Shown one piece after another: positions 1 to 62,134 of a DNA stretch of 64,000 bases. How positions within the stretch are numbered: the stretch's first letter is position 1; each line of letters begins with the position of its first letter. The notes below the pieces were generated by a model. That model saw nothing but the letters and a program-made list of their open reading frames with translations, did not search any database and was not told the origin of the DNA. The stretch spans positions 1-64,000 of IMG/VR virus record IMGVR_UViG_3300045283_000349, one strand, 5' to 3'. The position numbers and the translations under genes are program-made. Origin of the DNA: a virus.

Positions 1-13
1 AAATGCCTTGTTT

Positions 14-625
14 TTATAACGGGGGACGGTCGCGCTTCGCGGCGGCTGCCTCGCCCAGAAGCTCCTGGTAGGCGGTCAGCAGCCGCTCAAATTGGTCCTT
101 CAGCTTGCGGTAGTACTCGGCCGCCCCGGATGCGGCCGCCAGCTCGCGGTCGCGCCAGGCAATCTCCGCCGTGGCCTCGGCCAGGCGCTTGTCAAGCTCG
201 GCCTGCACCAGCAGCGCGCACTCGTAGCAATCGACGCGGGTGCAGTTCCTGTCGAGGTGGGCGAGCGACTGAAGGCTCATCACCACGAAGCCCTCGGGAA
301 TGCCCCACGCAGGGCCACGCGCGAGGTATGAGACGGACCTGCGCAGCTCGCGGCCGGTGTACTTGCCCGGTGGTTCCTTGGCCCACTCGACCGTGTGCGG
401 TCCGAGATCGGGAGCGAAGCCCGGGGGGTATGGCGTTCCGCCCTCCCACTCCCGGCGCGGCACCCATTCCTTGAGCACCAGCACGTTGCCGGGGTCGAAG
501 CCCCGATCGTCGCGCCGGAACTCGAAGGTCTTGCGCCCGCAGCGGAGCGCCTCGAATGGGTCGGGCCATGTCTTCAGCTCGTGGACCACGTCCGGGCGCC
601 AGTATTGCAGCTCGTTAAGGGTCAT
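14..625 (-). CDS. DUF3850-domain protein
   Basis: A 203-residue protein. Residues 15-60 (HELKTWPDPFEAL, then a Lys-Thr-Phe-Glu-Phe-Arg-Arg-Asp stretch) match the DUF3850 family of small ASCH/PUA-like domains common in phages; members of that fold are thought to bind RNA or nucleotides, but the exact role is unknown. The C-terminal third (about 130-195) holds several cysteines and then a charged, probably coiled-coil helix that is unusual for the family. The ATG overlaps the stop of the gene upstream by 4 bases (ATGA), so the two are probably translationally coupled. It is the last gene of the long minus-strand cassette in this window. Confidence 0.8.
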   Translation of the reverse strand: MTLNELQYWRPDVVHELKTWPDPFEALRCGRKTFEFRRDDRGFDPGNVLVLKEWVPRREWEGGTPYPPGFAPDLGPHTVEWAKEPPGKYTGRELRRSVSYLARGPAWGIPEGFVVMSLQSLAHLDRNCTRVDCYECALLVQAELDKRLAEATAEIAWRDRELAAASGAAEYYRKLKDQFERLLTAYQELLGEAAAAKRDRPPL

Positions 626-11365: not shown

Positions 11366-11653
11366 CTACTTGGGCTGTTTCAGCTTCGGATCATCAGGCA
11401 CGAGACTTAACGTTTTTGACTTCGGTCGTGTCGTCGGAGCCGGTGGTAGCGCCCACCGATCCATCGCAGCCTGGACCTGACGAAGGACCGAGCGCACCCG
11501 CGAGCGTAGGCGCACGCCCGAGGCGATGTGCGCGTCGATGTCGACCACCAACGCCTCGAGATCGGCCTGCTTGAGGACGGGCACCTCGATCAGCATCGGC
11601 TGGACCGCGATGCCGACGGGCGCCGGCGCCGGTGTTTTCTCGCCCGCAGCCAT
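11366..11653 (-). CDS. hypothetical protein of the recombination cassette
   Basis: A 95-residue protein, last of the operon with YqaJ. Valine-rich start, then a helical middle (residues 28-68) and a basic tail. Its ATG shares a base with the stop of the gene upstream (TGATG). No family is recognised; position suggests an accessory factor of recombination. Confidence 0.6.
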   Translation of the reverse strand: MAAGEKTPAPAPVGIAVQPMLIEVPVLKQADLEALVVDIDAHIASGVRLRSRVRSVLRQVQAAMDRWALPPAPTTRPKSKTLSLVPDDPKLKQPK

Positions 11654-12933
11654 CAGCCCTCGCTGCCGGGCTCGGGCGGGTCAGCTGGCGTGCCTTGCCC
11701 GATCATGCTCTCGTGCAGCTTGTCCAGCTCGGGCGGCGTCGCGCCCGCGGGCAGGGGCGGCACCTTCTCGGTCTTGCCGGCCCAGTCGAACGTGGTGCGG
11801 CCTGCCGCGCGCGCCTTCGCGATGGCGGCGGCGCGCGGATCGCCGGCGGCGGCCGCGATGGCTTCGCGCGCAGCCTTCGACTGGGCCGCGACGTCGTTGA
11901 GGCTAGCGGGCTTCGACTTGCCGGCGGCCGCGCCCGCCTCGGCTGCTGTCTGCGGCGGCGTGGCCGCGCCGGGCGTTGCGGGGTCAGCGGCCGGCGGCGT
12001 CCCAGTGAAGGCGGCAGCGTTGGCCCGCCCACGCTGCTCGAGCTTGTGGGCGATCGCCTCGTCCCAGGTGGCCTCGCCGTCCTGGATCGTCGTGAACAGG
12101 CTGCGCAGCTCCTGCATCTCGCCCACGTTGACCGTCGCGACCGGGTGGCCCAGGTACTCCACCAACTGGGCCTCGTTGACCTTCAGCTCGGACAGGTATG
12201 CCGCACGCATCCGCTTGACGCTGTCCGGGTCTGACGCCAGCGCCTTTTCGCGCGTGGCATAGCAGGCCTCCATCGCCTCCTGCAGGATGTCGCCAGGCAC
12301 CACCCGCAGCAGCAGCGTGCGCAGGGCCTTGCTGACCAGGCTATTGTTCTTGTTCAAGGTCTCGTCGTCGGTCGCGGCGACCTCGAAGACCTGATAGCCC
12401 TTGCTGTTGTAGCGACTGCTGATCGCGGTCTGCCCCTTGCCCACCTTGCTGCGCTCGACGGTCTTGGTCACCACGACGCTCATGGGATAGGTCAGGTTGG
12501 CCTCAAGATCGGTCACGCTGACCTGGAGGATCCGCCGCTCCCGGTCCTCGTAGATCGTCATCACGTTCGTGTCGATGTTGCCCATGGCCCGGGCCGCCTC
12601 CTCGGCCAGCCGGATCGACGGCCCCTCGATGCCCTCGCCGACGGGCTTGCGGTAGATCGCCACGTCCGCGAACTTGGGCCGCGCGCAGGCCTTGAGCAGG
12701 TTGGTGCGCGTGCGGTCGATGTCCCGCGGATATTGCCGGGCCATGACGAAGCGGGCCTCGATGCCGGCGCGGGCCGCCGCCGCGATCGATGCGGTCGCGG
12801 TCTCCCCGCTGATCTGCATCTCGGCCCCCATGGCCCCCGTGCGCTGGGTGCCGACAGCCATCGAGCTGCCGTTGTTGCGGGGGACGTTGACCAGGGTGCC
12901 GGTGGCGGGCTGCTCGGGAGGATTCGCGCTCAT
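11653..12933 (-). CDS. phage recombination-associated protein, probable annealing partner of YqaJ
   Basis: A 426-residue protein. A conserved-looking core covers about 50-260 (RFVMARQYPRD, a Gly-Pro-Ser-Ile-Arg-Leu-Ala-Glu helix, VSVTDLEAN, VVPGDI), followed by a long Ala/Pro-rich, probably flexible C-terminus. I recognise the core as that of phage proteins found next to exonucleases and RecT/Erf-type recombinases, but cannot show it is itself a RecT fold. Immediate linkage to YqaJ suggests it anneals single strands or loads the exonuclease product. ATGA overlap with yqaJ. Confidence 0.6.
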   Translation of the reverse strand: MSANPPEQPATGTLVNVPRNNGSSMAVGTQRTGAMGAEMQISGETATASIAAAARAGIEARFVMARQYPRDIDRTRTNLLKACARPKFADVAIYRKPVGEGIEGPSIRLAEEAARAMGNIDTNVMTIYEDRERRILQVSVTDLEANLTYPMSVVVTKTVERSKVGKGQTAISSRYNSKGYQVFEVAATDDETLNKNNSLVSKALRTLLLRVVPGDILQEAMEACYATREKALASDPDSVKRMRAAYLSELKVNEAQLVEYLGHPVATVNVGEMQELRSLFTTIQDGEATWDEAIAHKLEQRGRANAAAFTGTPPAADPATPGAATPPQTAAEAGAAAGKSKPASLNDVAAQSKAAREAIAAAAGDPRAAAIAKARAAGRTTFDWAGKTEKVPPLPAGATPPELDKLHESMIGQGTPADPPEPGSEG

Positions 12934-14012
12934 GCTGCTTTGCCTTTCTTGCTCGGTTTGCGGGCGGCCTTGCGGGCCACGGTCAGATCGTCACTGGGCA
13001 CCGGCGCCAGCTCGGGCGGGCCCCCAGGCGGCGGCTCGGGCGCGCGCTCAGCGGGCAGCGGCTCCTTGGTCTGTCGAAGCATCCGGTAGGAGTAGGGCGG
13101 GACCACGTTCGTGTAGCCCGGGTTGTCGATCGTCTTGTAGGACAGGCGGGTGCCGTCAGGCAGGACGCCGAACGTGTTCGGCCCCAGCCAGGCCTTCACC
13201 CGCGCCTCAGCCACGGCCTGCAGGCGCTCGGCCGCCTTGCCCGCCTCCTTGGCTGCGCGCAGTTGGTCCCAGGCCTCCAGGGCCCCGCCGGGCAGGTTGA
13301 CCACGCAGCCGTTGTCCTTGGGATGCAGGCGCTTGAGCGCCTCGAGCGTGCGGGGGTGGCCGTCGACCTCGGGCTCTTGGCCCGATTGCACCGACTCCCA
13401 GAACGTCTCGACCTGGATCTGCAGCTCCTCGATGAACCCGTCCATGCGGGGCACGTCCCAGGTCATCAGCTTGTTGCCCATGGCCAGCGTCGCGACCGTC
13501 GCGTAGTCGCGGCCCGTGACCGCCAGCTCGTGCTGGACCTGGATCTGGACGTGTTGGGGCACGCCCGCGGACCAGCCGTCGGGGTCGAAGACGTTCGCCG
13601 TGTTCTTGATCTGGAGCGTGCCCTCCTCGGCCAGGCCCAATGCCCGGCGGTCCGGCGCCTCGATGATGAACCCATCGGGGGTGGCGAACATGCACGGAAG
13701 CTGCGGGTGCTGGGCGATGCAGAAGCTCGAGAAGCGCCACAGCTTGCGGCCCGTGCGCAGGGCGTGCTCGTCGGCAATTGGCCCCTCCAGCAACTGGCCC
13801 CAGCGCAGGCGCTCGGCCACGTCGCCCTCGGGCTCCCACTCGGGCACGCGCCCCGACTTTATCAGCCAGAGCGAAAACCGGCTCTGGTAGGGCGACAGGC
13901 CGAAAAGGGCCGCGCTCTCGCTGGCGCCGATGCCGCTGCGCCGGGCCGCCAGCCAGTCGGCGCGGTTGCCGTAGTCCACCACGTGTTCGACCGGGAGCCG
14001 TTCAGTTGCCAT
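12930..14012 (-). CDS. YqaJ-type lambda-exonuclease-like recombinase
   Basis: A 360-residue protein of the YqaJ viral recombinase family (PD-(D/E)XK fold, 5'-3' double-strand exonuclease). GIGASESAALFGLSPY (27-42) is the family opener; the active-site region shows ATPDGF (Asp near 113) and later LQIKNT (Lys near 134). The C-terminal 100 residues, Pro- and Lys-rich, are longer than in small members and could contact the annealing protein. It prepares ends for homologous recombination of phage DNA. Confidence 0.88.
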   Translation of the reverse strand: MATERLPVEHVVDYGNRADWLAARRSGIGASESAALFGLSPYQSRFSLWLIKSGRVPEWEPEGDVAERLRWGQLLEGPIADEHALRTGRKLWRFSSFCIAQHPQLPCMFATPDGFIIEAPDRRALGLAEEGTLQIKNTANVFDPDGWSAGVPQHVQIQVQHELAVTGRDYATVATLAMGNKLMTWDVPRMDGFIEELQIQVETFWESVQSGQEPEVDGHPRTLEALKRLHPKDNGCVVNLPGGALEAWDQLRAAKEAGKAAERLQAVAEARVKAWLGPNTFGVLPDGTRLSYKTIDNPGYTNVVPPYSYRMLRQTKEPLPAERAPEPPPGGPPELAPVPSDDLTVARKAARKPSKKGKAA

Positions 14013-31856: not shown

Positions 31857-32336
31857 CTAGAAGCCGATCCCGATGGGAGCGGCGATCATCCCGTCGACGC
31901 CCTCGATGACGCGCATGACGTTCAGGGTGAGCGAGACCTTCGTGGGGTCGGTGCCGTCGGCGTTGTTGTAGTCCGCCTTGACGATCCGGCAGCCCAGCAG
32001 CGTGTGGGTGACCACCGGCATCTGCGCCTCCGCGAACTGGACCACGACCGGGAACCGCACCTCGCCATAGCCCTGCCCCGCCAGGAACCCCACGGCGTTC
32101 AGGCTGGCCCGGAACACCTCCCAGGCGCGCAGGTACATCTCGAGCGTGCCGTCCGCGGTCTGCTTGCCGCGGGTGGTGCCGAGCTTCTGCGAGCGCGTCC
32201 CATAGACGTCGGCGACGTCGAGGCCGGTCGAGTAGTTGATCGCGGTGAAGTCCACGATCTTGATCCCAGGCAGCCCCGCCTCGATGGAGGCGAAGCTGTA
32301 GAAGTTGCCCTGAATCAGCGGGTTTTGCAGCGGCAT
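31857..32336 (-). CDS. tail tube protein
   Basis: A 159-residue protein right after the sheath gene, as in Mu and P2. It shares its full pattern with the probable tube initiator at 28874-29413. It would polymerise into the inner tube of the contractile tail. Good length for a tube subunit. Confidence 0.75.
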   Translation of the reverse strand: MPLQNPLIQGNFYSFASIEAGLPGIKIVDFTAINYSTGLDVADVYGTRSQKLGTTRGKQTADGTLEMYLRAWEVFRASLNAVGFLAGQGYGEVRFPVVVQFAEAQMPVVTHTLLGCRIVKADYNNADGTDPTKVSLTLNVMRVIEGVDGMIAAPIGIGF

Positions 32337-47800: not shown

Positions 47801-49204
47801 TTAGATGCGCCGGGGGGCGTGCACCGTGGGCAGGGGCCTACCGACTCGTGGTGCCGAGCCACTCAACATGAGGTGGGTTAGGGCCCAGACGTTGGCATCG
47901 AGCCGGTCGGGACTCTTGCGGGCCAACAGCGGGTTCCACGTGGTCATCTGGTCCTCGAGCCTTGCATGCACACCGACGTGGTGCACCTCGCCCTTCTCGT
48001 AGAGCGTCGCGATCGGCTCGGCGCGGATGGCTTTGCCTCGCGATGCCGTGACGGCCTGGTAGGCCACGGGCCGGTCGCGCGCGTAGGCCCGCAGGGTCGA
48101 TCCCACCAGGGCGCCACCGTTGTTGACCTCGGCGATGATCTTGTCCATCTGCTGATCGTGGTAGGCGTCGACCGCGATTTTCGCCCACTCCTCGGGCTGG
48201 TAGTAGCCCGACAGGTCGCCCAGCACGAAGCCGTGCATGCCCTCCTTGTTCTGGCAGATGCAGCGGCCGACGCCCGCGTAGACGATGCCGGTCTCGGCGG
48301 TGAAGATCTCGGTCTCGGCGGCACGCTTGCGATCGGCCTCGTCGGCCGTGGCTGGATCGATCGCCAGCACCATGCGCAGCAGATCGAAGGGCGGCACGAC
48401 CACGCGCGACTTTTCGATCGTCGACATCTTGAACATGGCGCCCGGCGTGTCGCCGAGTAGCTCGCCGCGGATCTCCTGCTGGCCAAGGCGCGTGCCCTCG
48501 AATTCGTCGCGGATCGCCTCGAAGAACTTGCGGTCGAGGTTCTTGGCATTGTCGTAGGTGCTGCCGCCCTGGACGATGCTGCCCGGGTTGATGACGAGCT
48601 GGCGGATCAGAGCCGTGGGCCGCGGGGTCATCGTGATCACCATCTGGGGGCTGTCGCCCCGCGGGCCGGTGATGCGGAGGGCGAGCCGGATCAGCTTCCA
48701 GGTCATCTCGGCATTTCGCCAAGACCCGAGCTCGTCGGCCCAGAGGTAGTCGTGGTTGCCACCGCGGGCACGCTCGGGCTCCTCGGAGCTGTAGAGATGG
48801 GCCACGGCGCCGTTGGGCCAGTGCAGCTCGCGGTCCTTGGCGATCCAGGTTGGCCGATCAATTTCCGGCGTGATGGCCAGGATCCCGCTCGGTCCCTCGA
48901 TCATCAGCTTGCGGCCGTCGCCGAGGGTGGGGGCAACCAGCGCGATGTTGCGCCGCCGGCCCTGGGCGACCTGGGCGCGCACCGTCTGCGCACCGGTCAT
49001 CGTCTTGCCCCAGCCGCGGCCGGCCTTGATGATCCAATAATCCCAGTCCTTCCTCGCCAGCGCCGCGCCCGGCTCGCCAGGCGGGATCTGCTCGGGCCGC
49101 GCCATCGAGGTCCAGTCATAGGCGTTGACGGCGCGCCGGTGGGCGGCCTGCCGTTCGGAAAGGATGCTCGCAACGAGCCGGAGGCGGGCAGCGAAGGCGG
49201 TCAC
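47801..49204 (-). CDS. terminase large subunit
   Basis: A 467-residue packaging motor from GTG 49204. Walker A is GRGWGKT (62-68), Walker B is YLWADE with Asp157-Glu158, and a nuclease domain occupies the C-terminal half (IDPATADEADRK region, with Asp residues near 290). It is of the Mu gp28/TerL type and would cut and package DNA into the head through the portal encoded next. It overlaps the sigma-like gene by 4 bases. Confidence 0.92.
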   Translation of the reverse strand: MTAFAARLRLVASILSERQAAHRRAVNAYDWTSMARPEQIPPGEPGAALARKDWDYWIIKAGRGWGKTMTGAQTVRAQVAQGRRRNIALVAPTLGDGRKLMIEGPSGILAITPEIDRPTWIAKDRELHWPNGAVAHLYSSEEPERARGGNHDYLWADELGSWRNAEMTWKLIRLALRITGPRGDSPQMVITMTPRPTALIRQLVINPGSIVQGGSTYDNAKNLDRKFFEAIRDEFEGTRLGQQEIRGELLGDTPGAMFKMSTIEKSRVVVPPFDLLRMVLAIDPATADEADRKRAAETEIFTAETGIVYAGVGRCICQNKEGMHGFVLGDLSGYYQPEEWAKIAVDAYHDQQMDKIIAEVNNGGALVGSTLRAYARDRPVAYQAVTASRGKAIRAEPIATLYEKGEVHHVGVHARLEDQMTTWNPLLARKSPDRLDANVWALTHLMLSGSAPRVGRPLPTVHAPRRI

Positions 49205-49935
49205 CGCAGCGTGGTTTTCCTGTTCATTGTCGCGCGCGCGGCCGCGAAAGCATCCTGCGCCTGCACCTCGATCTGCCGGACCCGCTCGTGGCTGATGCCC
49301 AGGTTCTTGGCCGTCTCCGAGAGCGACGAGACGCCGGCGGCGGCGAGGTCAAGCGAGCAGGTGTGCTTCATGTCCTCGAGCGCAACGCCTGGGTGATTCA
49401 GCCGGATCGCCCCGCTGGTCGCGTGCACTTCGAGGAACAGGTGGTGCCGGCAGCTGACCCAGGGGCAGGGGCGGATCCCGCCTTCGCATTCCTCGCGGCT
49501 CTGCGGCCGCGGGTTCTCCGCGAAGAGCGCGCGCAGCTGCAGCGGCGTCAGCTCGCCATCGCTGATCCCGTCGAGTGCGGTCTGGCTCTTGGCCGAGACC
49601 CGGCCGCGCCGGCCGATCACGGGCAGCTTTACGGTCCGCATCCGCTGCAACGGCGCCGGGCCGATCGCGAACGGCAGCAGGGATCCGCGCAACACCAACA
49701 GCTGCTCGAGCCGCGCGCGGCGCGGATGGCGGAACAGGAAGGGCGCGCGCGGCCGCCGCGCCGGCAGGGACGGATCGCGGTCCTCGCGCCGGATCAACGC
49801 CACCGCTGCAGCACCACGTAACCACGGCTGACAAGGCGGCTCGGGCGGCGGCGGGGCCATAGCATGCGGCCCGACCACCGCCAGCCCCGGGCGTACAGGC
49901 ACCCACGTCTCAACTGGCTGACTCGCTGGCATCAT
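49201..49935 (-). CDS. sigma-factor region-4-like DNA-binding protein
   Basis: A 244-residue protein (ATG 49935, preceded by AAAGGGGGTG). After a disordered Pro-rich start, residues near 150-190 contain CEGGIRPCPWVSCRHHLFLEV, and the C-terminus TCSLDLAAAGVSSLSETAKNL then GISHERVRQIEVQAQDAF is a sigma-70 region 4 helix-turn-helix. I associate this combination with proteins encoded in myxobacterial chromosomes. Placed before the terminase gene, it could be a late-gene activator or a small terminase substitute. It is the prime candidate to read the M1 or M2 motifs. Confidence 0.6.
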   Translation of the reverse strand: MMPASQPVETWVPVRPGLAVVGPHAMAPPPPEPPCQPWLRGAAAVALIRREDRDPSLPARRPRAPFLFRHPRRARLEQLLVLRGSLLPFAIGPAPLQRMRTVKLPVIGRRGRVSAKSQTALDGISDGELTPLQLRALFAENPRPQSREECEGGIRPCPWVSCRHHLFLEVHATSGAIRLNHPGVALEDMKHTCSLDLAAAGVSSLSETAKNLGISHERVRQIEVQAQDAFAAARATMNRKTTLR

Positions 49936-49971
49936 GGCGTCACCCCCTTTCTCGATACCCATGTGGGTACT

Positions 49972-50003
49972 CGCTGACATGTGGACCTGTTGACTTATTG
50001 ATT
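49972..50003 (-). promoter_or_regulatory. M2 octamer array (terminase operon)
   Basis: Four octamers on the minus strand, AATCAATA-AGTCAACA-GGTCCACA-TGTCAGCG, 37 bases before ATG 49935. No M1 motif joins it. Confidence 0.55.
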
Positions 50004-50066: not shown

Positions 50067-51899
50067 TCAACCCCGGCCCCCGGCTGCGGTTGGCTGGGTC
50101 TTCGCCTCAAGGCGCTCCACGCGGCCGCCCAGGCGCTGCAGGCGCTGCAGAAGCTCGAGGGCGGGGTCTGGCGCCGCGGGCGCGGGCTGGCCGACCAGGC
50201 GCAAGCCAACGACGCCGGCGCCGGGGGCGTCCGTGAAGCGCGGGGGCCATGCCCCGGCCGGGATGTGGGCGCGGCGGGGTGGGGCGGGCGGCGGCAGCGG
50301 CGCGGCGGGGGCTGGCGCGGGCGGCGCCTGGGCCGCTAGGTACTCGCGCAGGATCCGCGGCAGCGGCTGGGCGGGGTAGGCGGCACGGAATTCGGTCACC
50401 CGCTGGGCCATGACCGCGTTGACCACCGCGGCGATCGCGGGATCGGCCGGCGCGTGATACCCGAGGCCGGCGCAGTTGCGGTCCTTGCGGAAGTCGGTCC
50501 AGTCGAGTGCCCGCTGCCGGGCAGCCTCCTCGCGGCTGGGCGCGGCTGCGCGTTCGGCGCGCTCGGCCTCGATGGCGCGGGCTGTGCGCGCCGACGATGC
50601 GGCCAGAGCTTTTGCGCGCGCCTGCTTGTCGCGCTCGCGCCGCTCGGCCTCGAAATCGCGGGGCGCGCCGCGCGCCGCTGGCTTCTCGGCCTCTGGGTTT
50701 GCGGGCTTTGGGTCGGACCACTGGCGCTTGTGGAGGTAGCGCTCGAAGTAGGGGACGCCGATGCCGTCCGCCCAATGTGTGGGGACCTTCCAGGCGAGGT
50801 GTTCCATCACGCGGTCGAACAGCACCTGCTCGCCCAGCTCGGCGGCCAGCGCCAGCCAGACCCCGTGGGCTTGGATCTTGGTGCCGCGGTGGTTCGGGTA
50901 GGCCGAGAAGGCGGTCTCGAACCGGGCCGGAAAGCCGGAAGCCGGCATTGGCACGGCCGCTGGCATCCGCGGCTCCCGGGTGTGCCGCCGCCGGACGGAC
51001 GCATGGGCGGCTCGGCGGGTCTCGGCTGGGTCCCGGCCTGAAAAAAGCTCGGCCTGACCCCCCCCCGTCCCCGGGGGGTTAGGGGGGATCTGATCTTCAG
51101 ATCGTTCGTTCGTTCGATCCCCCGAACGAGAAGTGAATGGTTGCGCGGGGTTAACCGACTTCTCAGTGGGACGTCGGTGGGACGTCAGTGGGACGTCAGT
51201 GGGACGTCGGTGGGACGTCAGTGGGGAATCGGCGGCCTCGTCTGCAGGCTGCGCGGGTTGGAAACGGGCGAAGTTTTTGATCTGCAGCCAGGTCGGCCCG
51301 GCGCTGGGGTGGGGCACCAAATAGCCGTCTGCCAACAGTTCGCCGACCCAGCCGGCGAGCAGGCCGCGCTCGCGGATATGACGCTCGCCGCCCCAGGCCA
51401 AGCGCTGCATGATCTGGTCGGGATCGGCGTCGATCTCCCCGTCGTCGCCGGCGATGCGCAACAGCTGGTGCGCGAAGGCCTTGGTCATCATGGGCAGACG
51501 AGCGAACGAGGGCGACTCGTGGACGAAGCAGATGCGGAAGGCCCGGTGTGTGCGAATTCCGCCACCCCATCCCATGGCCGCTATTTCACTCCACGTGGGA
51601 ATTTCCAGGCATCCGTCCGTTAGGACGATGAGCCCCGCGGCTTCGAGGCGCGCCAGAGCGTTGCGGATGTAGCGATCGTCAACCTGGTTGACCCGACCGA
51701 GGACGCGGAACAGGTGGCGCTCGGCTTGCCGGAGCAGCGACAAGCTGGCTACGGCCGGAAAGTAGATGCGGCCCTTGTGGGCGTGCGCGGTCTTCTTCAT
51801 GAGGTCGAAGACCATTTGCGCGGTGGCGCCGATCTGCGCCTCTTTGCCGGTGGCCGCCCCCCGCTCGATGCGGATAAAGGGTAGGCGGTCATACCGCAT
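50067..51899 (-). CDS. replication initiator-like protein with internal repeat array
   Basis: A 610-residue protein starting MRYDRLPFIR with a GAGG ribosome-binding site. Residues 20-220 look like two winged helix units (FDLMKKTAHAHKG, FRVLGRVNQVDDRY, LIVLTDGCLEI; AFAHQLLRIAGDDGEID), as in phage and plasmid replication proteins. A low-complexity linker (225-300) encoded by tandem 11-bp repeats follows, then a helical part and an Arg/Ala-rich C-terminus. The repeats inside the gene recall lambda O and its origin. It probably recruits DnaB. Confidence 0.6.
   Translation of the reverse strand: MRYDRLPFIRIERGAATGKEAQIGATAQMVFDLMKKTAHAHKGRIYFPAVASLSLLRQAERHLFRVLGRVNQVDDRYIRNALARLEAAGLIVLTDGCLEIPTWSEIAAMGWGGGIRTHRAFRICFVHESPSFARLPMMTKAFAHQLLRIAGDDGEIDADPDQIMQRLAWGGERHIRERGLLAGWVGELLADGYLVPHPSAGPTWLQIKNFARFQPAQPADEAADSPLTSHRRPTDVPLTSHRRPTEKSVNPAQPFTSRSGDRTNERSEDQIPPNPPGTGGGQAELFSGRDPAETRRAAHASVRRRHTREPRMPAAVPMPASGFPARFETAFSAYPNHRGTKIQAHGVWLALAAELGEQVLFDRVMEHLAWKVPTHWADGIGVPYFERYLHKRQWSDPKPANPEAEKPAARGAPRDFEAERRERDKQARAKALAASSARTARAIEAERAERAAAPSREEAARQRALDWTDFRKDRNCAGLGYHAPADPAIAAVVNAVMAQRVTEFRAAYPAQPLPRILREYLAAQAPPAPAPAAPLPPPAPPRRAHIPAGAWPPRFTDAPGAGVVGLRLVGQPAPAAPDPALELLQRLQRLGGRVERLEAKTQPTAAGGRG
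51087..51103. repeat. inverted repeat beside the iteron array
   Basis: GATCTGA-TCT-TCAGATC, 7-bp arms, followed by three CGTT units. It lies 60 bases from the tandem repeats, within the same gene, and may be part of an origin. Confidence 0.45.
51166..51220. repeat. five tandem 11-bp repeats (iteron-like)
   Basis: Five copies of GTGGGACGTCR without gaps (the last base alternates G, A, A, G, A), then a partial copy. Each contains the palindrome GACGTC. As 11 is not a multiple of 3, the encoded protein repeats every 33 bp. The place within an initiator gene makes a replication origin likely. Confidence 0.65.
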
Positions 51900-52480
51900 G
51901 GACGGGCCTCGATGGCGCCACGCAACAAGCTAATGAAATTGCTTGCTTACGTGACAGTTCACAACCCGGAAAAATAATAATTCGGGCGAGGCTGTGGTAG
52001 CCTCTTTCGAGTTCACGGCGTCGGCGCATTGGAGTTCACGGCTCCTTGATTGGCTGGGGTGCTAGCCCCTGTTGAATGCACAGATGCCTGGGCCGCGAAC
52101 CCCTCGTCTCGTGCTTCAGGCTGGGCGGCCTGTCGCGCAAAAAAGGGACGAGGGGTTCGCGCCTGGTTCGTTGCGCTGATCCCCCCGTGCGGCCGGTCAG
52201 CACCGGCGCAGTGGTGGTAGTGTCGAGGAATCGGATCGCGATCGGCGGCGCCGCGTGGAACGTCTGAGATGCATGGCCGCCGGTCAGATGGCATCGATGC
52301 TGACTCCGAACCCCTACCGGGGCTGGTCTATTAGCACAACAGGTGAGAGTGGCTCTATTCGAGCCGTTTCCCCGATTGCGCTACGGTTGGCGCGAGAGGT
52401 TCATCCCGCCGCCGCATCGTCAAGCAAGGTCGCTGACGAGATCAACGTCAAAGCGTTCCCGCTGAAAAAAGACGACGGTG
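51900..52480. other. gene-free region of about 580 bp
   Basis: No convincing gene on either strand. It holds the AT-rich upstream region of the replication gene (51930-51990), a direct repeat GAGTTCACGGC (52009-52019 and 52032-52042), the large inverted repeat described separately, and a small one GGCTC/GAGCC near 52350. It may be an origin-linked, partition or regulatory RNA region. Confidence 0.5.
52094..52161. repeat. 15-bp perfect inverted repeat around a nested hairpin
   Basis: CGCGAACCCCTCGTC (52094-52108) and its exact reverse complement (52147-52161) flank 38 bases that contain a second hairpin CAGGC/GCCTG and a run of A. The structure could be an RNA hairpin, a terminator, or a protein-binding site such as a parS or att-like element. 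Confidence 0.55.
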
Positions 52481-52846
52481 TCAGCGCCGCGTCTGGGTCT
52501 TGTTGCGCCTGGCTACCCAGGCCCGGGCCTCCTTTTCGTGATCGAGCCAAAAGTCGAGTGCGTCGCGCAACACCGCGCTGAGATCGAACTTGTTGGTGTA
52601 GCCGAGCTGCTTGCGCTCCCAGGCGTGGTTGTCGAGCGCCTTGCGGTGTCGGTCGGCGATCGAGAAGGACGTGTAGATCTTCGCCGGCATCGGCTCGAGC
52701 TCGGCGCCGTCAGCGGGAGCGGCCTCTTTGCGGGCGCGCTTGGCCCGCGCGCCGGTCGACCCCAGGATGAAGTCGGGCTCGGTTGCTCGCTTGGCCGCAG
52801 CGGCCCCCACGGTCTCTGCCATCTGCTCTGCCGATCGCTTTGCCAC
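52481..52846 (-). CDS. partition-associated DNA-binding protein (ParB-like role)
   Basis: A 121-residue protein from GTG 52846, with AAAGGG at good spacing. The basic N-terminus and the C-terminal helix-rich region (SFSIADRHRKALDNHAW to AVLRDALDFWLDHEK) look like a small ribbon-helix-helix-type centromere-binding protein such as those paired with plasmid ParA. It follows parA directly. The fold is not certain. Confidence 0.5.
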   Translation of the reverse strand: MAKRSAEQMAETVGAAAAKRATEPDFILGSTGARAKRARKEAAPADGAELEPMPAKIYTSFSIADRHRKALDNHAWERKQLGYTNKFDLSAVLRDALDFWLDHEKEARAWVARRNKTQTRR

Positions 52847-52856
52847 GCGCACCCTT

Positions 52857-53621
52857 TCAGCGGCTCGCAAGCCGCGCCTTCGTCTCTTTCAAAATCGCCG
52901 TGTAGTCCTCGGCCCCGCGCGGGTCGGCGCCGTGGTCGAAGGCCACCGCGCCGGTCTCTGGCAGCTTCTTGCCCGCGGTCGACAGCCGGACCTCCGCATT
53001 GAACAGGCGGGCCGCGCCCAGCTGGCGGACGCTGGCCCGGGTCCCCTCGGTCACGCCTTCCCGATCATCGCCGCCGAAGATGACCGCGCCGGTGATATCC
53101 ACCTTCACGCGCGCGCGGGCGCGGATCTGGTCGACCAGCTTGCGGATGTCGACCAGGCCGTTGATGCCCATAAAACCAGGCAACACCGGCACAAGGACGC
53201 TATCCGAGGCGAAGATCGCGGACTGGGTCAGGAAGGCCACCCCGGGCGGGCAGTCGAACACCACGAGATCGAAGACCTTGCGGTGTGGCTTGAGGATCTC
53301 GCGCAGCACGGTCTCGCGACCGAAGGTCTGCGACAGCGTCGCCTCCACGGTCTGCAGGCCGTTCGAGGCTCGCGCCATGTAGAGACCGGGCCGGGCCTCG
53401 ATGTGGTCGATGTGCTCCTGCTCGAGGGCGCCTTGCACCATGGCCTCGGCGATCCCCTTGGGCGCGCGGCCCCCCAGCAGCCAGGTGCTGGCGTGGGCCC
53501 CGTGGTCGAGGTCGGCCAGCAGCACGCGCTCGCCTGCGGCGGCGGCGCCGGCGGCGATGTGCACAGCGAGCGATGTCTTGCCGACCCCGCCCTTGCCGCT
53601 GGCCACCGCGATCGAGCGCAT
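52857..53621 (-). CDS. parA: ParA-family partition ATPase
   Basis: A 254-residue Walker-type ATPase. Deviant Walker A KGGVGKTS starts near residue 10, Walker A' region VLLADLDHGAHAS near 36, Walker B FDLVVFDCPPGV near 125. Such proteins move plasmids or chromosomes by forming gradients on the nucleoid. Start ATG 53621 shares a base with the stop upstream. The presence of parA with a small basic partner in a phage genome signals low-copy plasmid maintenance, as in P1. Confidence 0.85.
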   Translation of the reverse strand: MRSIAVASGKGGVGKTSLAVHIAAGAAAAGERVLLADLDHGAHASTWLLGGRAPKGIAEAMVQGALEQEHIDHIEARPGLYMARASNGLQTVEATLSQTFGRETVLREILKPHRKVFDLVVFDCPPGVAFLTQSAIFASDSVLVPVLPGFMGINGLVDIRKLVDQIRARARVKVDITGAVIFGGDDREGVTEGTRASVRQLGAARLFNAEVRLSTAGKKLPETGAVAFDHGADPRGAEDYTAILKETKARLASR

Positions 53622-53842
53622 CACTCGTCCTTGGCTTTGGCCGCTCTGGGCCCTTTGCGTCTCTCGGCGGCGAATCGCTCGACATCGGCTCGCTTCATGA
53701 ACCGGGTGCCCCGGGTCGTCAACATGCAGGGCAAAACGCCGTTGTCGCAGAAGTCGCGGACGGTCTCGGCCGACACCATCAGGATGTGCGAGGCGTCCGT
53801 GGTTCCGACGATCTCCTCCTGGTCAGGCTTCTTCTTTGGCAT
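53621..53842 (-). CDS. helix-turn-helix regulator of the partition operon
   Basis: A 73-residue protein starting MPKKKPDQEE with a MerR/excisionase-type helix-turn-helix (LMVSAETVRDFCDNGVLP, about 21-40; FMKRADVERFAAE). It is the first gene of the parA operon and would bind the inverted repeat upstream. It is related in type to the 81-residue protein at 14013. Confidence 0.65.
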   Translation of the reverse strand: MPKKKPDQEEIVGTTDASHILMVSAETVRDFCDNGVLPCMLTTRGTRFMKRADVERFAAERRKGPRAAKAKDE

Positions 53843-59830: not shown

Positions 59831-60084
59831 GACCGGCCTCCCCGTATCGGCGGCCGGATCTCTCCCGGCTTGCGCAGCTTTTTCAGCAGCTCCTCGAGCG
59901 CCTCGATCATCGATGCGCGCTGGGCGTTCGACACGTAGGTCGCCCAGCCGTCGTTGCCGAATTCGAACAGCCACACGACGAAACCGATGCCCTGGGGCAG
60001 GTCGTCGCCGATGGCGTGCCCCAGCTTGCGAGCCTGGGCCTCGAGCTTGGCCAGGGCAGCGATGCGGGCTGGATCGTCGCTCAC
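59827..60084 (-). CDS. hypothetical protein
   Basis: An 85-residue protein from GTG 60084 (GTGA overlap). Short helices around a beta strand (GFVVWLFEFGNDGWATYV). No family is recognised. Confidence 0.6.
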   Translation of the reverse strand: MSDDPARIAALAKLEAQARKLGHAIGDDLPQGIGFVVWLFEFGNDGWATYVSNAQRASMIEALEELLKKLRKPGEIRPPIRGGRS

Positions 60085-61820
60085 TGCGCCAGCTCCGGGT
60101 GAATGCGCAGCTTGCCGCCGTCCCGCAAGAACAGCCCCGCGCCGACCAGCTCGCCCACGTAGGCCTTCCAGGTCCCGCCCGTGATCGTCATGGGCTCGTC
60201 CCCATCCTTGGAGCGCGAGCGGTTGACCGCATCGTTGAGCACCTGCGGCGTCGCCTCGTGGTTTACCGCCAGCTCCAGCAGGATGTCGACCGTCCCCTTG
60301 CGGAACTTGGACGCCCACTCGTCGAGGATCTCACTGCGGTTCAAGGTGGCGCGGGGCACCTCAAGGGCGACCCCAGCCGGGGTCAGGCCGAGCTTGCCGT
60401 CCTCGCGGTCGACGTAGCAGCCGCCGACCAGCTCGCCGATGTACGCCTTGAATGTGCCGCCCGTGACCGTCATCACGGCCAGCACCGCCAGGTCGGCCGG
60501 GGCCACGCGCGCCGGGTGGTGCTGCTGAAGGATCGAGACGAGGCGCAGGACGCCCGCGCGCAGACGCTTGCCGCTGGCGCCGTTGGGCTGCGGCGACTTG
60601 CCGCCCACGATGCCAAGGCGGGCCGCCGACCCTGGGGGCGGCCCTTTGAGGATCACGGTGGCGGTGCTGCTGACCTGCGCGGGGAATCGCCGGGCCTTGA
60701 GGTCGCTCTGCAAGAGCTCGAATTCTCCGACGACCCTGCGCATGACGTCCAGGACCTCGCCCAGCGTCTCGCTGATCGACTCGACCCGGGCAAACACCGC
60801 GGGCGGGATCGGTGGCGGCGGCGGCGGCGCCGGGGGCCTCGCCATGCCCACCGCCGCCTTGAGCTTCCGCACCTCGGCCTTGAGCGCGTCGACGTCGTTG
60901 GCGGCGATCTCGGTCTCGACCGAGGCTAGCGCCGCGCGCACCTCATCGAGATCGATCGGCGGCAGCTTGCGCGTGGTCTCGCCCGCGCGCCCACCCGTGG
61001 GTGTGGCGCTGGCGTCGTAGGTCTCCTTGCGCAGGATCTTGTGCCTGCCGAAGGACCCCAGCCACTGCGGCGACCACACCAGCGCCGTGCCGGGCTTCAG
61101 GCTGGGCAGATCGTTGGCGATCTCGCGATCGCCCGCGCCGGTCTCCTGCACCCATCCCGTGATGGCCTTGCGCTCCTGGGGCCCGGTCAGCTGGAACGCC
61201 AGCATCACCTCGGCCTGGTTGAGGACGTCCTTGTTGACGGCCTGGGGCCGCTGCGAGATGAGCGAGCAGCCCACGCCGTAGTTGCGCCCGAGCTTGATCA
61301 GGCGCTCGACCGCGCCGACCATCTTGGCCATCTCGGGCCGGACCAGCTGGGGCACGAATTCCTGCGCCTCCTCGAACACGATGTGCAGGGGCGAGCGCGA
61401 GCGCTTCTTGGCGTGGAACAGCTCGAGGCAGAACTCTCCAACGAACTTGCGCTGTTCAGCCCCGGTCATCTCCGAGACGTCGAGGACCATCGACGTCGAG
61501 CGGGTGACCACCATCTCGGCGAAGACTTTGCCCGCGGTGGGCGGCAGCGGCAGATCCCCGTGCGCCCCGCCGAACACCGGGACGTTGAGGCCCGAGGGCT
61601 TCTTGCCGTCGGCGGCGAAGCGCAGGCCCCACCACGTCCCGACCGGATCGATCACGACGACCTGGACGCCCACGCCGATCAGCAGCTCGGCCATGCGGCC
61701 CGCGCCGTAGGTCTTGCCTGAACCACGGCGGCCCATCCAGGCATAGACCTGCGTGGCCGCGGTCTCGGCGGGCAGGTCCAGGTCCTCGCCGAGGGCGAGC
61801 TTCCAGCCGGCGGCGGTCAT
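60081..61820 (-). CDS. HerA-like AAA+ ATPase with duplicated C-terminal winged helix
   Basis: A 579-residue protein. Walker A GRRGSGKT lies near 31-38 and VVVIDPVGTWWGL near 54; EEAQEFVPQL is a Walker B-like part, RNYGVGCSLISQRP carries a sensor Gln and an Arg. This is the HerA/FtsK-like DUF87 class of DNA pumps. Two similar C-terminal units (TGGTFKAYIGELVGG and TGGTWKAYVGELVGA) look like duplicated winged helices. No NurA nuclease is adjacent. It may move or unwind DNA or act in defence. Confidence 0.75.
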   Translation of the reverse strand: MTAAGWKLALGEDLDLPAETAATQVYAWMGRRGSGKTYGAGRMAELLIGVGVQVVVIDPVGTWWGLRFAADGKKPSGLNVPVFGGAHGDLPLPPTAGKVFAEMVVTRSTSMVLDVSEMTGAEQRKFVGEFCLELFHAKKRSRSPLHIVFEEAQEFVPQLVRPEMAKMVGAVERLIKLGRNYGVGCSLISQRPQAVNKDVLNQAEVMLAFQLTGPQERKAITGWVQETGAGDREIANDLPSLKPGTALVWSPQWLGSFGRHKILRKETYDASATPTGGRAGETTRKLPPIDLDEVRAALASVETEIAANDVDALKAEVRKLKAAVGMARPPAPPPPPPIPPAVFARVESISETLGEVLDVMRRVVGEFELLQSDLKARRFPAQVSSTATVILKGPPPGSAARLGIVGGKSPQPNGASGKRLRAGVLRLVSILQQHHPARVAPADLAVLAVMTVTGGTFKAYIGELVGGCYVDREDGKLGLTPAGVALEVPRATLNRSEILDEWASKFRKGTVDILLELAVNHEATPQVLNDAVNRSRSKDGDEPMTITGGTWKAYVGELVGAGLFLRDGGKLRIHPELAQ

Positions 61821-62134
61821 GGCGTGGCGGGCTCCGTGGCGTTGCACTCGGCGCACCCGCACCCAGGGATCCCAATACGGCGCCAATAGTCGTCGACGGG
61901 CAGCGCGCGGGCGGCCGCGATGGCCGATGTGAGCGCCTGGACGAAGCGCTCAGCGTGCTCTATCGACAGACTCCCCTGGAATGAGAGGCCCTGGGTTCTG
62001 GCCTCGAACACCACGCGGGCGGCGACGAGAGGCGCGGCATGCGGCGTGGTTCGAAAAGGAGAACGGGAAACGACGTTCAGATTTACACCATCGCCCTCAC
62101 CCGCATCGAACGAAGGGATCTCGGATCTGCCCAT
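61817..62134 (-). CDS. hypothetical protein
   Basis: A 105-residue protein with three close cysteines near the end (GCGCAEC). Mixed alpha-beta. ATGA overlap with the ATPase gene. No family is recognised. Confidence 0.6.
   Translation of the reverse strand: MGRSEIPSFDAGEGDGVNLNVVSRSPFRTTPHAAPLVAARVVFEARTQGLSFQGSLSIEHAERFVQALTSAIAAARALPVDDYWRRIGIPGCGCAECNATEPATP

What the first reader, a model, noticed from the sequence alone, without database searches (positions are those of the whole stretch)
51166..51220. Iteron array inside the replication gene
Five gapless GTGGGACGTCR units with a nearby inverted repeat and three CGTT units lie in the initiator-like gene. Lambda O binds iterons inside its own gene; the same trick may be used here. 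The DNA signal forces the protein to carry an 11-residue repeat (Pro-Thr-Ser-His-Arg-Arg type), a sign of selection on DNA rather than on protein.
Basis: partly seen in the sequence, partly recalled or inferred. Interest (0 to 1): 0.72.

Follow-up and report, generated by a model that had tools for sequence, protein, structure and literature searches.

The report
Phage replication origin inside initiator gene
A bacterial virus carries, inside the gene for its own replication starter protein, a row of five short repeats next to an easily melted stretch, which is most likely where copying of its DNA begins; this is a known trick, seen in phage lambda and its relatives, found here in a virus with no close known relatives.

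Summary
The array is real: five perfect GTGGGACGTCR units at an exact 11-bp step (51166-51220), with a decayed sixth. It is the strongest tandem array in the window, and 5000 synonymous-codon shuffles of the gene never gave so long an 11-bp periodicity. The gene (50067-51899, minus strand, 610 aa) has a C-terminal domain related to phage replication initiators (phrog_270); its first ~225 residues match nothing I could find. The array lies in the linker between the two parts, and the least stable 50 bp of the gene begins 24 bp past it. Lambda O, P22 18, phage L 18 and SPP1 38 show the same order. Of 51 phrog_270 genes, 34 hold a tandem array (synonymous shuffles: mean 10, maximum 15; neighbour ORFs: 11 of 120), mostly with different motifs. 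Phage L gene 18, with six 11-bp repeats annotated as a putative origin, is the closest published case. Binding, origin activity and conservation could not be tested: no close relative of the protein was found. A probably circular genome, parA and no tyrosine or serine integrase hint at a phage-plasmid.

The parts
50067..51899 (-). Replication-initiator gene, 610 aa, ATG start
   Evidence: ORF; phrog_270 replication initiation protein E 9.6e-5 over residues 282-460 and phrog_9327 primosomal protein E 0.0039; no Pfam family at E<=1
51166..51220 (+). Five perfect 11-bp iterons GTGGGACGTCR (each contains the palindrome GACGTC)
51221..51230 (+). Decayed sixth iteron GTGGGGAATC
   Evidence: (the 30-nt copy that spans it is 73% identical in register)
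51088..51138 (.). Candidate unwinding element: least stable 50 bp of the gene, 24 bp past the array in coding sense
   Evidence: only 0.42% of 50-bp stretches of the 64-kb window are less stable; 52% GC over 51088-51162
51083..51129 (.). Inverted repeats (GATCTGA/TCAGATC; GGGGGATC/GATCCCCC; TCGTTCG/CGAACGA) and CGTT units inside the unstable stretch
   Evidence: DNA folding z about -2.5 on either strand
51222..51899 (-). N-terminal part of the protein (226 aa), presumed DNA-binding, no identified family
   Evidence: no PHROG match at E<=10; only PF21084 winged-helix E 0.15, below cut-off; unaided AlphaFold model pLDDT 38.5, unusable
50613..50936 (-). C-terminal initiator domain (residues 322-429, FETAFSAYP ... 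GVPYFERYLHKRQW)
   Evidence: profile from related initiators: 20.8 bits against a best of 6.7 in 2000 shuffled copies
51900..52480 (.). 580-bp stretch between the candidate par genes and the initiator with no gene assigned with confidence; holds the least stable 50 bp of the window (51931-51981), two GAGTTCACGGC repeats and a 15-bp perfect inverted repeat (52094-52108/52147-52161); candidate promoter or partition region and the main rival place for an origin
   Evidence: no Rfam match
52481..52870 (-). 129-aa protein next to ParA, candidate partner of ParA
   Evidence: position and overlap only; no Pfam or PHROG match
52857..53624 (-). ParA-like partition ATPase
   Evidence: phrog_164 E 6.5e-44; PF13614
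9024..10697 (+). Phage DnaB-like replicative helicase
   Evidence: PF03796 E 2.2e-78; phrog_19 E 1.5e-95

Best explanation
The array is the iteron set of this phage's replication origin, placed inside the coding sequence of the initiator that binds it. Inferred steps: the N-terminal part of the 610-aa protein binds the 11-bp units, which stand about one helical turn apart and so face the same side of the helix; the bound row of proteins strains and opens the weak, hairpin-rich stretch at 51088-51138 just beyond it; the C-terminal domain brings in a replicative helicase, plausibly the phage's own DnaB. Shown: the array, its position, the weak stretch, the C-terminal relationship, the family habit and the DnaB gene. 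Not shown: binding, opening, helicase contact, origin activity.
For: Exact 11-bp array, 0 of 5000 synonymous shuffles. C-terminal domain of initiator families. Order repeats-then-least-stable stretch as in lambda O, P22 18, phage L 18 and SPP1 38, and by tendency in the family: the gene's least stable window starts -20 to +150 bp from the array end in 15 of 33 genes against 18.6% expected, P 0.0004, and the downstream side is weaker than the upstream side in 23 of 33, P 0.007. In-gene arrays in 34 of 51 phrog_270 genes against a shuffle mean of 10, maximum 15, mostly with different motifs. Phage L gene 18 has 11-bp in-gene repeats annotated as a putative origin (PMC8022706 passage). The phage encodes a DnaB-like helicase.
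Against: No close homolog of the protein was found, so conservation of the array was not testable. 17 of 51 family genes (11 of the 43 of at least 240 aa) have no array at score 40. Similar GTGGGA-type 11-bp tandem repeats are common in bacterial DNA with no initiator: of 100 pattern loci only L005 lay in a recognisable initiator. Cumulative GC skew has its minimum at 32122, not here, and its range is no larger than chance. The least stable 50 bp of the whole window is upstream of the gene. The protein's N-terminal part matches no DNA-binding family with confidence.
Confidence: 0.78

Rival explanations
1. The array is a recent slipped-strand tandem duplication tolerated in a disordered linker, with no function as DNA.
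For: Units are almost identical, as after recent expansion; tandem GTGGGA-type 11-bp arrays occur in many bacterial genomes outside initiator genes; no relatives to show conservation.
Against: Arrays with different motifs recur at a similar place in the phrog_270 family far above synonymous shuffles and neighbour ORFs; 13 of 34 have periods that are not multiples of 3, against 1 of 11 in control ORFs; the weak stretch lies beside it.
Confidence: 0.1
2. The array is a partition site (centromere) for the ParA system encoded 1-2 kb away, bound by the 129-aa protein or another adaptor.
For: ParA and a small overlapping gene are near; some partition adaptors bind short tandem repeats (11-bp repeats of plasmid R1 parC: recalled, from no call; iterons before a parM gene in phage B83: PMC6669507 passages).
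Against: The array sits inside the neighbouring initiator gene, in the linker where family members hold arrays; a region without an assigned gene but with repeats lies between the par genes and the initiator and would be a more usual site.
Confidence: 0.06
3. The origin is in the 580-bp region upstream of the initiator (51900-52480); the in-gene array is a copy-number control or autoregulatory site.
For: 51931-51981 is the least stable 50 bp of the window; repeats and a 15-bp perfect inverted repeat are there.
Against: An AT-rich promoter region is expected upstream of a gene; only two or three diverged repeats and no iteron array there.
Confidence: 0.06

Closest known systems
Phage L gene 18 (P22-like Salmonella phage; MW013502)
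   Same: Gapless 11-bp repeats inside the initiator gene, after the N-terminal part, followed by the gene's least stable stretch; phage has its own DnaB-like helicase (PMC8022706 passage)
   Different: Motif TGTCCAACGGA in two clusters; no detectable protein similarity to the window protein by BLASTP; its helicase gene is adjacent, here it is about 24 kb away on the circle
Bacteriophage lambda O / ori-lambda
   Same: Iterons within the initiator gene, then an AT-rich stretch; N-terminal DNA-binding and C-terminal P-binding halves (PMC3985674 and PMC6022878 passages; annotation)
   Different: Four 18-bp iterons of hyphenated symmetry spaced 20-24 bp; separate helicase-recruiting protein P; sequence relation to the window protein not tested directly
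SPP1 gene 38 (G38P)
   Same: 11-bp tandem array (x4.6) inside the initiator gene with the weakest stretch directly after it
   Different: Different motif, N-terminal family (the one shared by locus L005) and a separate loader G39P. That oriL lies within gene 38 is recalled; the passages I read say only that G38P binds oriL
phrog_270 replication initiation proteins of bacterial genomes (prophage-type)
   Same: C-terminal domain; in-gene arrays in 34 of 51
   Different: Window protein is about twice as long as most, and its N-terminal 226 residues do not match the profile

Membership tests
Phage initiator with in-gene origin (lambda O / P22 gp18 / phage L gp18 type of arrangement) | Repeated binding sites inside the initiator coding sequence, between N- and C-terminal parts | tested here: met
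   (that the repeats are binding sites is inferred)
Phage initiator with in-gene origin (lambda O / P22 gp18 / phage L gp18 type of arrangement) | Easily unwound stretch directly beside the repeats | tested here: met
   (computed duplex stability only)
Phage initiator with in-gene origin (lambda O / P22 gp18 / phage L gp18 type of arrangement) | Encoded protein binds the repeats | not testable with these tools
   needs a binding assay
Phage initiator with in-gene origin (lambda O / P22 gp18 / phage L gp18 type of arrangement) | Fragment acts as replication origin | not testable with these tools
   GC skew gives no signal
phrog_270 protein family | Sequence match to the C-terminal half of the profile | tested here: met
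   E 9.6e-5; independent profile 20.8 bits
phrog_270 protein family | Sequence match to the N-terminal half of the profile | tested here: not met
   no match at E<=10 for residues 1-226; so related in the C-terminal half only, not filed as a full member
Phage-plasmid | Circular genome with phage structural genes and partition genes, no integrase | tested here: inconclusive
   127-bp direct terminal repeat, which circular permutation or assembly also gives; ParA; terminase and portal; no PF00589 or PF00239 match; other integrase types not searched

The most novel reading that the evidence does not exclude
The protein joins a so far undescribed DNA-binding N-terminal region to a phrog_270-type C-terminal domain, and brought its own matching 11-bp origin along inside its gene; this single in-gene origin, next to parA, serves both lytic copying and maintenance as a low-copy plasmid. 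More widely, the linker of such initiators would be a standard, fast-changing slot for the origin, so that initiator and origin are always inherited together.
Probability: 0.3. Interest if true: 0.5.

Novelty: new member of a known kind. Interest (0 to 1): 0.33.

Why it matters
If right, it gives an exact, testable origin for an orphan phage lineage, and suggests that origins of uncultured phages can be predicted by looking for tandem repeats in the linker of initiator genes: 34 of the 51 phrog_270 genes examined hold one. It also illustrates how origin and initiator specificity can stay coupled by lying in one gene.

Tried and rejected
Close relatives: peptide scans of IMG/VR and GTDB contigs, tblastn of phages and plasmids, 385 genomes of the class of G001, and scans with terminase, portal and ParA gave no homolog of the initiator; the terminase gave three distant phages.

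Iteron motif as a tracer: exact double unit 0 in IMG/VR; a loose 11-bp GTGGGA pattern gave 5 viral and 95 bacterial loci, nearly all tandem repeats without an initiator; only L005 was one by the domain motif (which examined the first site of each locus and tested the motif on at most the two longest reading frames of at least 140 aa). This tells against the motif itself being diagnostic.

Structure: AlphaFold of residues 1-226 without relatives was unusable and no fold search was run. Solved-structure search gave only chance-level hits. Rfam and tRNA gave nothing. GC skew gave no signal. Considered and rejected: a repeat selected at protein level, because the period is 11 bp and not a multiple of 3.

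Survey limits: of 53 listed phrog_270 places at E<=1e-10 (17, 36), 47 had loci and were used; 6 had none. Of 21 places the 5 strongest were used (one of them, L107, is also) and 16 weaker ones dropped; 47 + 4 = 51. L105 was found through its array and so is not an independent observation (without it 33 of 50). One gene with an array was dropped for short flanks. The score limit was set after a first look. Two near-duplicate pairs of proteins are among the 51. Control ORFs are simply long open frames, not verified genes. Tandem Repeats Finder misses lambda's iterons, so a miss is not proof of absence.

Full report
Observation. It is the highest-scoring of 73 tandem-repeat rows in the window (126; next array 71). 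It lies in a minus-strand gene of 610 codons, 50067-51899. Because 11 is not a multiple of 3, three units make 33 bp and the protein shows two copies of about (S/V)PLTSHRRPT(D/E). Shuffling synonymous codons, which keeps the protein, never gave so long an 11-bp periodic run (0 of 5000). Near it are inverted repeats and CGTT units at 51083-51129; both strands fold somewhat better than shuffles (z about -2.5).

The gene. PHROGs calls residues 282-460 a replication initiation protein (phrog_270, E 9.6e-5) and, more weakly, a primosomal protein (E 0.0039); Pfam has nothing at E<=1. A profile that I built from the C-terminal parts of those related initiators that bear the aromatic-YP motif scores the window protein 20.8 bits, with the best of 2000 shuffled copies at 6.7. 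The N-terminal 226 residues match no PHROG even at E 10 and only a sub-threshold winged-helix model in Pfam. So the protein is initiator-like by one half only; that its N-terminal half binds DNA is inference from the arrangement in lambda O and its like.

Anatomy. The array falls between the two parts. The least stable 50 bp of the whole gene is 51088-51138, starting 24 bp past the array in the coding sense; 0.42% of the window's 50-bp stretches are weaker. As yardsticks I took four phage initiator genes: lambda O, P22 18 and phage L 18, whose records annotate in-gene iterons or an origin, and SPP1 38. In all four the least stable 50 bp of the gene begins close to the end of the repeats, on their downstream side (with lambda's iterons taken from the annotation). 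Lambda's irregularly spaced iterons are missed by the repeat finder; SPP1 38 and phage L 18 give 11-bp periods.

Family test. Searching genomes with phrog_270 (14 of 190 genomes in the class of G001, 29 of 274 in the class of G003) and nine records or genomes reached through loci gave 51 usable initiator frames. A tandem array of period 8 or more and score 40 or more lies in 34 of 51, against 11 of 120 neighbouring long ORFs (score 50: 30 of 51 against 8 of 120). Synonymous shuffles of the same 51 genes give a mean of 10 and a maximum of 15 (score 50: 5.5 and 10). Among the frames of at least 240 aa it is 32 of 43. The arrays start at a median of 38% into the frame (32 genes). Periods 11, 12 and 21-24 are common and 13 of 34 are not multiples of 3, against 1 of 11 control arrays; closeness to multiples of 11 is not distinctive by itself (21 of 34 against 6 of 11). 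The motifs mostly differ from gene to gene. The weakest stretch of the gene starts from -20 to +150 bp of the array end in 15 of 33, against 18.6% expected (P 0.0004), and the downstream side is weaker in 23 of 33 (P 0.007); these last tests are exploratory. 17 of 51 show no array at this limit.

A parallel case. Locus L005, found by its motif, is a 280-aa initiator frame from another virus with a GTGGGAYGTGC 11-bp array between an N-terminal domain and an FERFWGSYP-type C-terminal domain. Its N-terminal domain aligns with SPP1 gene 38 and with replication proteins of Staphylococcus, Bacillus, Listeria and Vibrio phages. Against the motif as such: 99 of 100 pattern loci showed no recognisable initiator at the site examined.

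What is in print. [quoted passage not shown] PMC3985674 and PMC6022878 (passages) describe ori-lambda within gene O, its four iterons and the adjacent AT-rich region. The arrangement is therefore known; this phage is a new member. Seven full-text searches did not list, by title and abstract start, a family-wide count of such arrays, but the library lacks most subscription papers and I read passages of eight papers only, so I make no claim that none exists.

Setting. The record is 66,967 bases with a 127-bp exact terminal repeat, so probably a circular 66.84-kb genome. It has a terminase and a Mu-type portal, a DnaB-like helicase, a RecE-like exonuclease, ParA, and no tyrosine or serine integrase by PF00589 and PF00239. 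In four family loci (L107, L126, L149, L158) a relative of that DnaB lies in the same short locus as the initiator. This suits an initiator that recruits a phage helicase, as P22 and phage L are annotated to have, and hints at a phage-plasmid.

Verdict. Interest is modest: a clean instance of a known arrangement in an orphan phage, with a useful general rule attached.

Noticed in passing
window 1-127 and contig 66841-66967 (L171): Exact 127-bp direct terminal repeat: the record is probably a complete circular genome of 66,840 bp.
   Followed up: yes
window 60081-61886 (-): 601-aa second packaging-like ATPase (phrog_2666 terminase large subunit E 5e-19; HerA_C barely over cut-off) besides the Terminase_6 gene at 47801-49204.
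   Followed up: no
L171:2499-3695 (contig 65499-66695, -): DNA methyltransferase (phrog_498) with a weak ParB-like match (phrog_8071, E 0.0006) at its N-terminal part.
   Followed up: no
window 49201-49980 (-): 259-aa protein with a sigma-70 region 4-like C-terminal end between the initiator and the terminase, where a small terminase subunit might be expected.
   Followed up: no
window 51900-52480: 580-bp stretch with a 15-bp perfect inverted repeat (38-nt spacer) and two GAGTTCACGGC repeats; no Rfam match.
   Followed up: partly
L010-L104: Tandem 11-bp GTGGGA-type repeats are widespread in bacterial assemblies (several contigs of one Saprospiraceae and one Breznakibacter bin), often outside long ORFs.
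   Followed up: no
window 11653-14012 (-): RecE-like (YqaJ) exonuclease (12930-14012) next to a 426-aa phrog_3657 protein of unknown function (11653-12933): candidate recombination pair.
   Followed up: no
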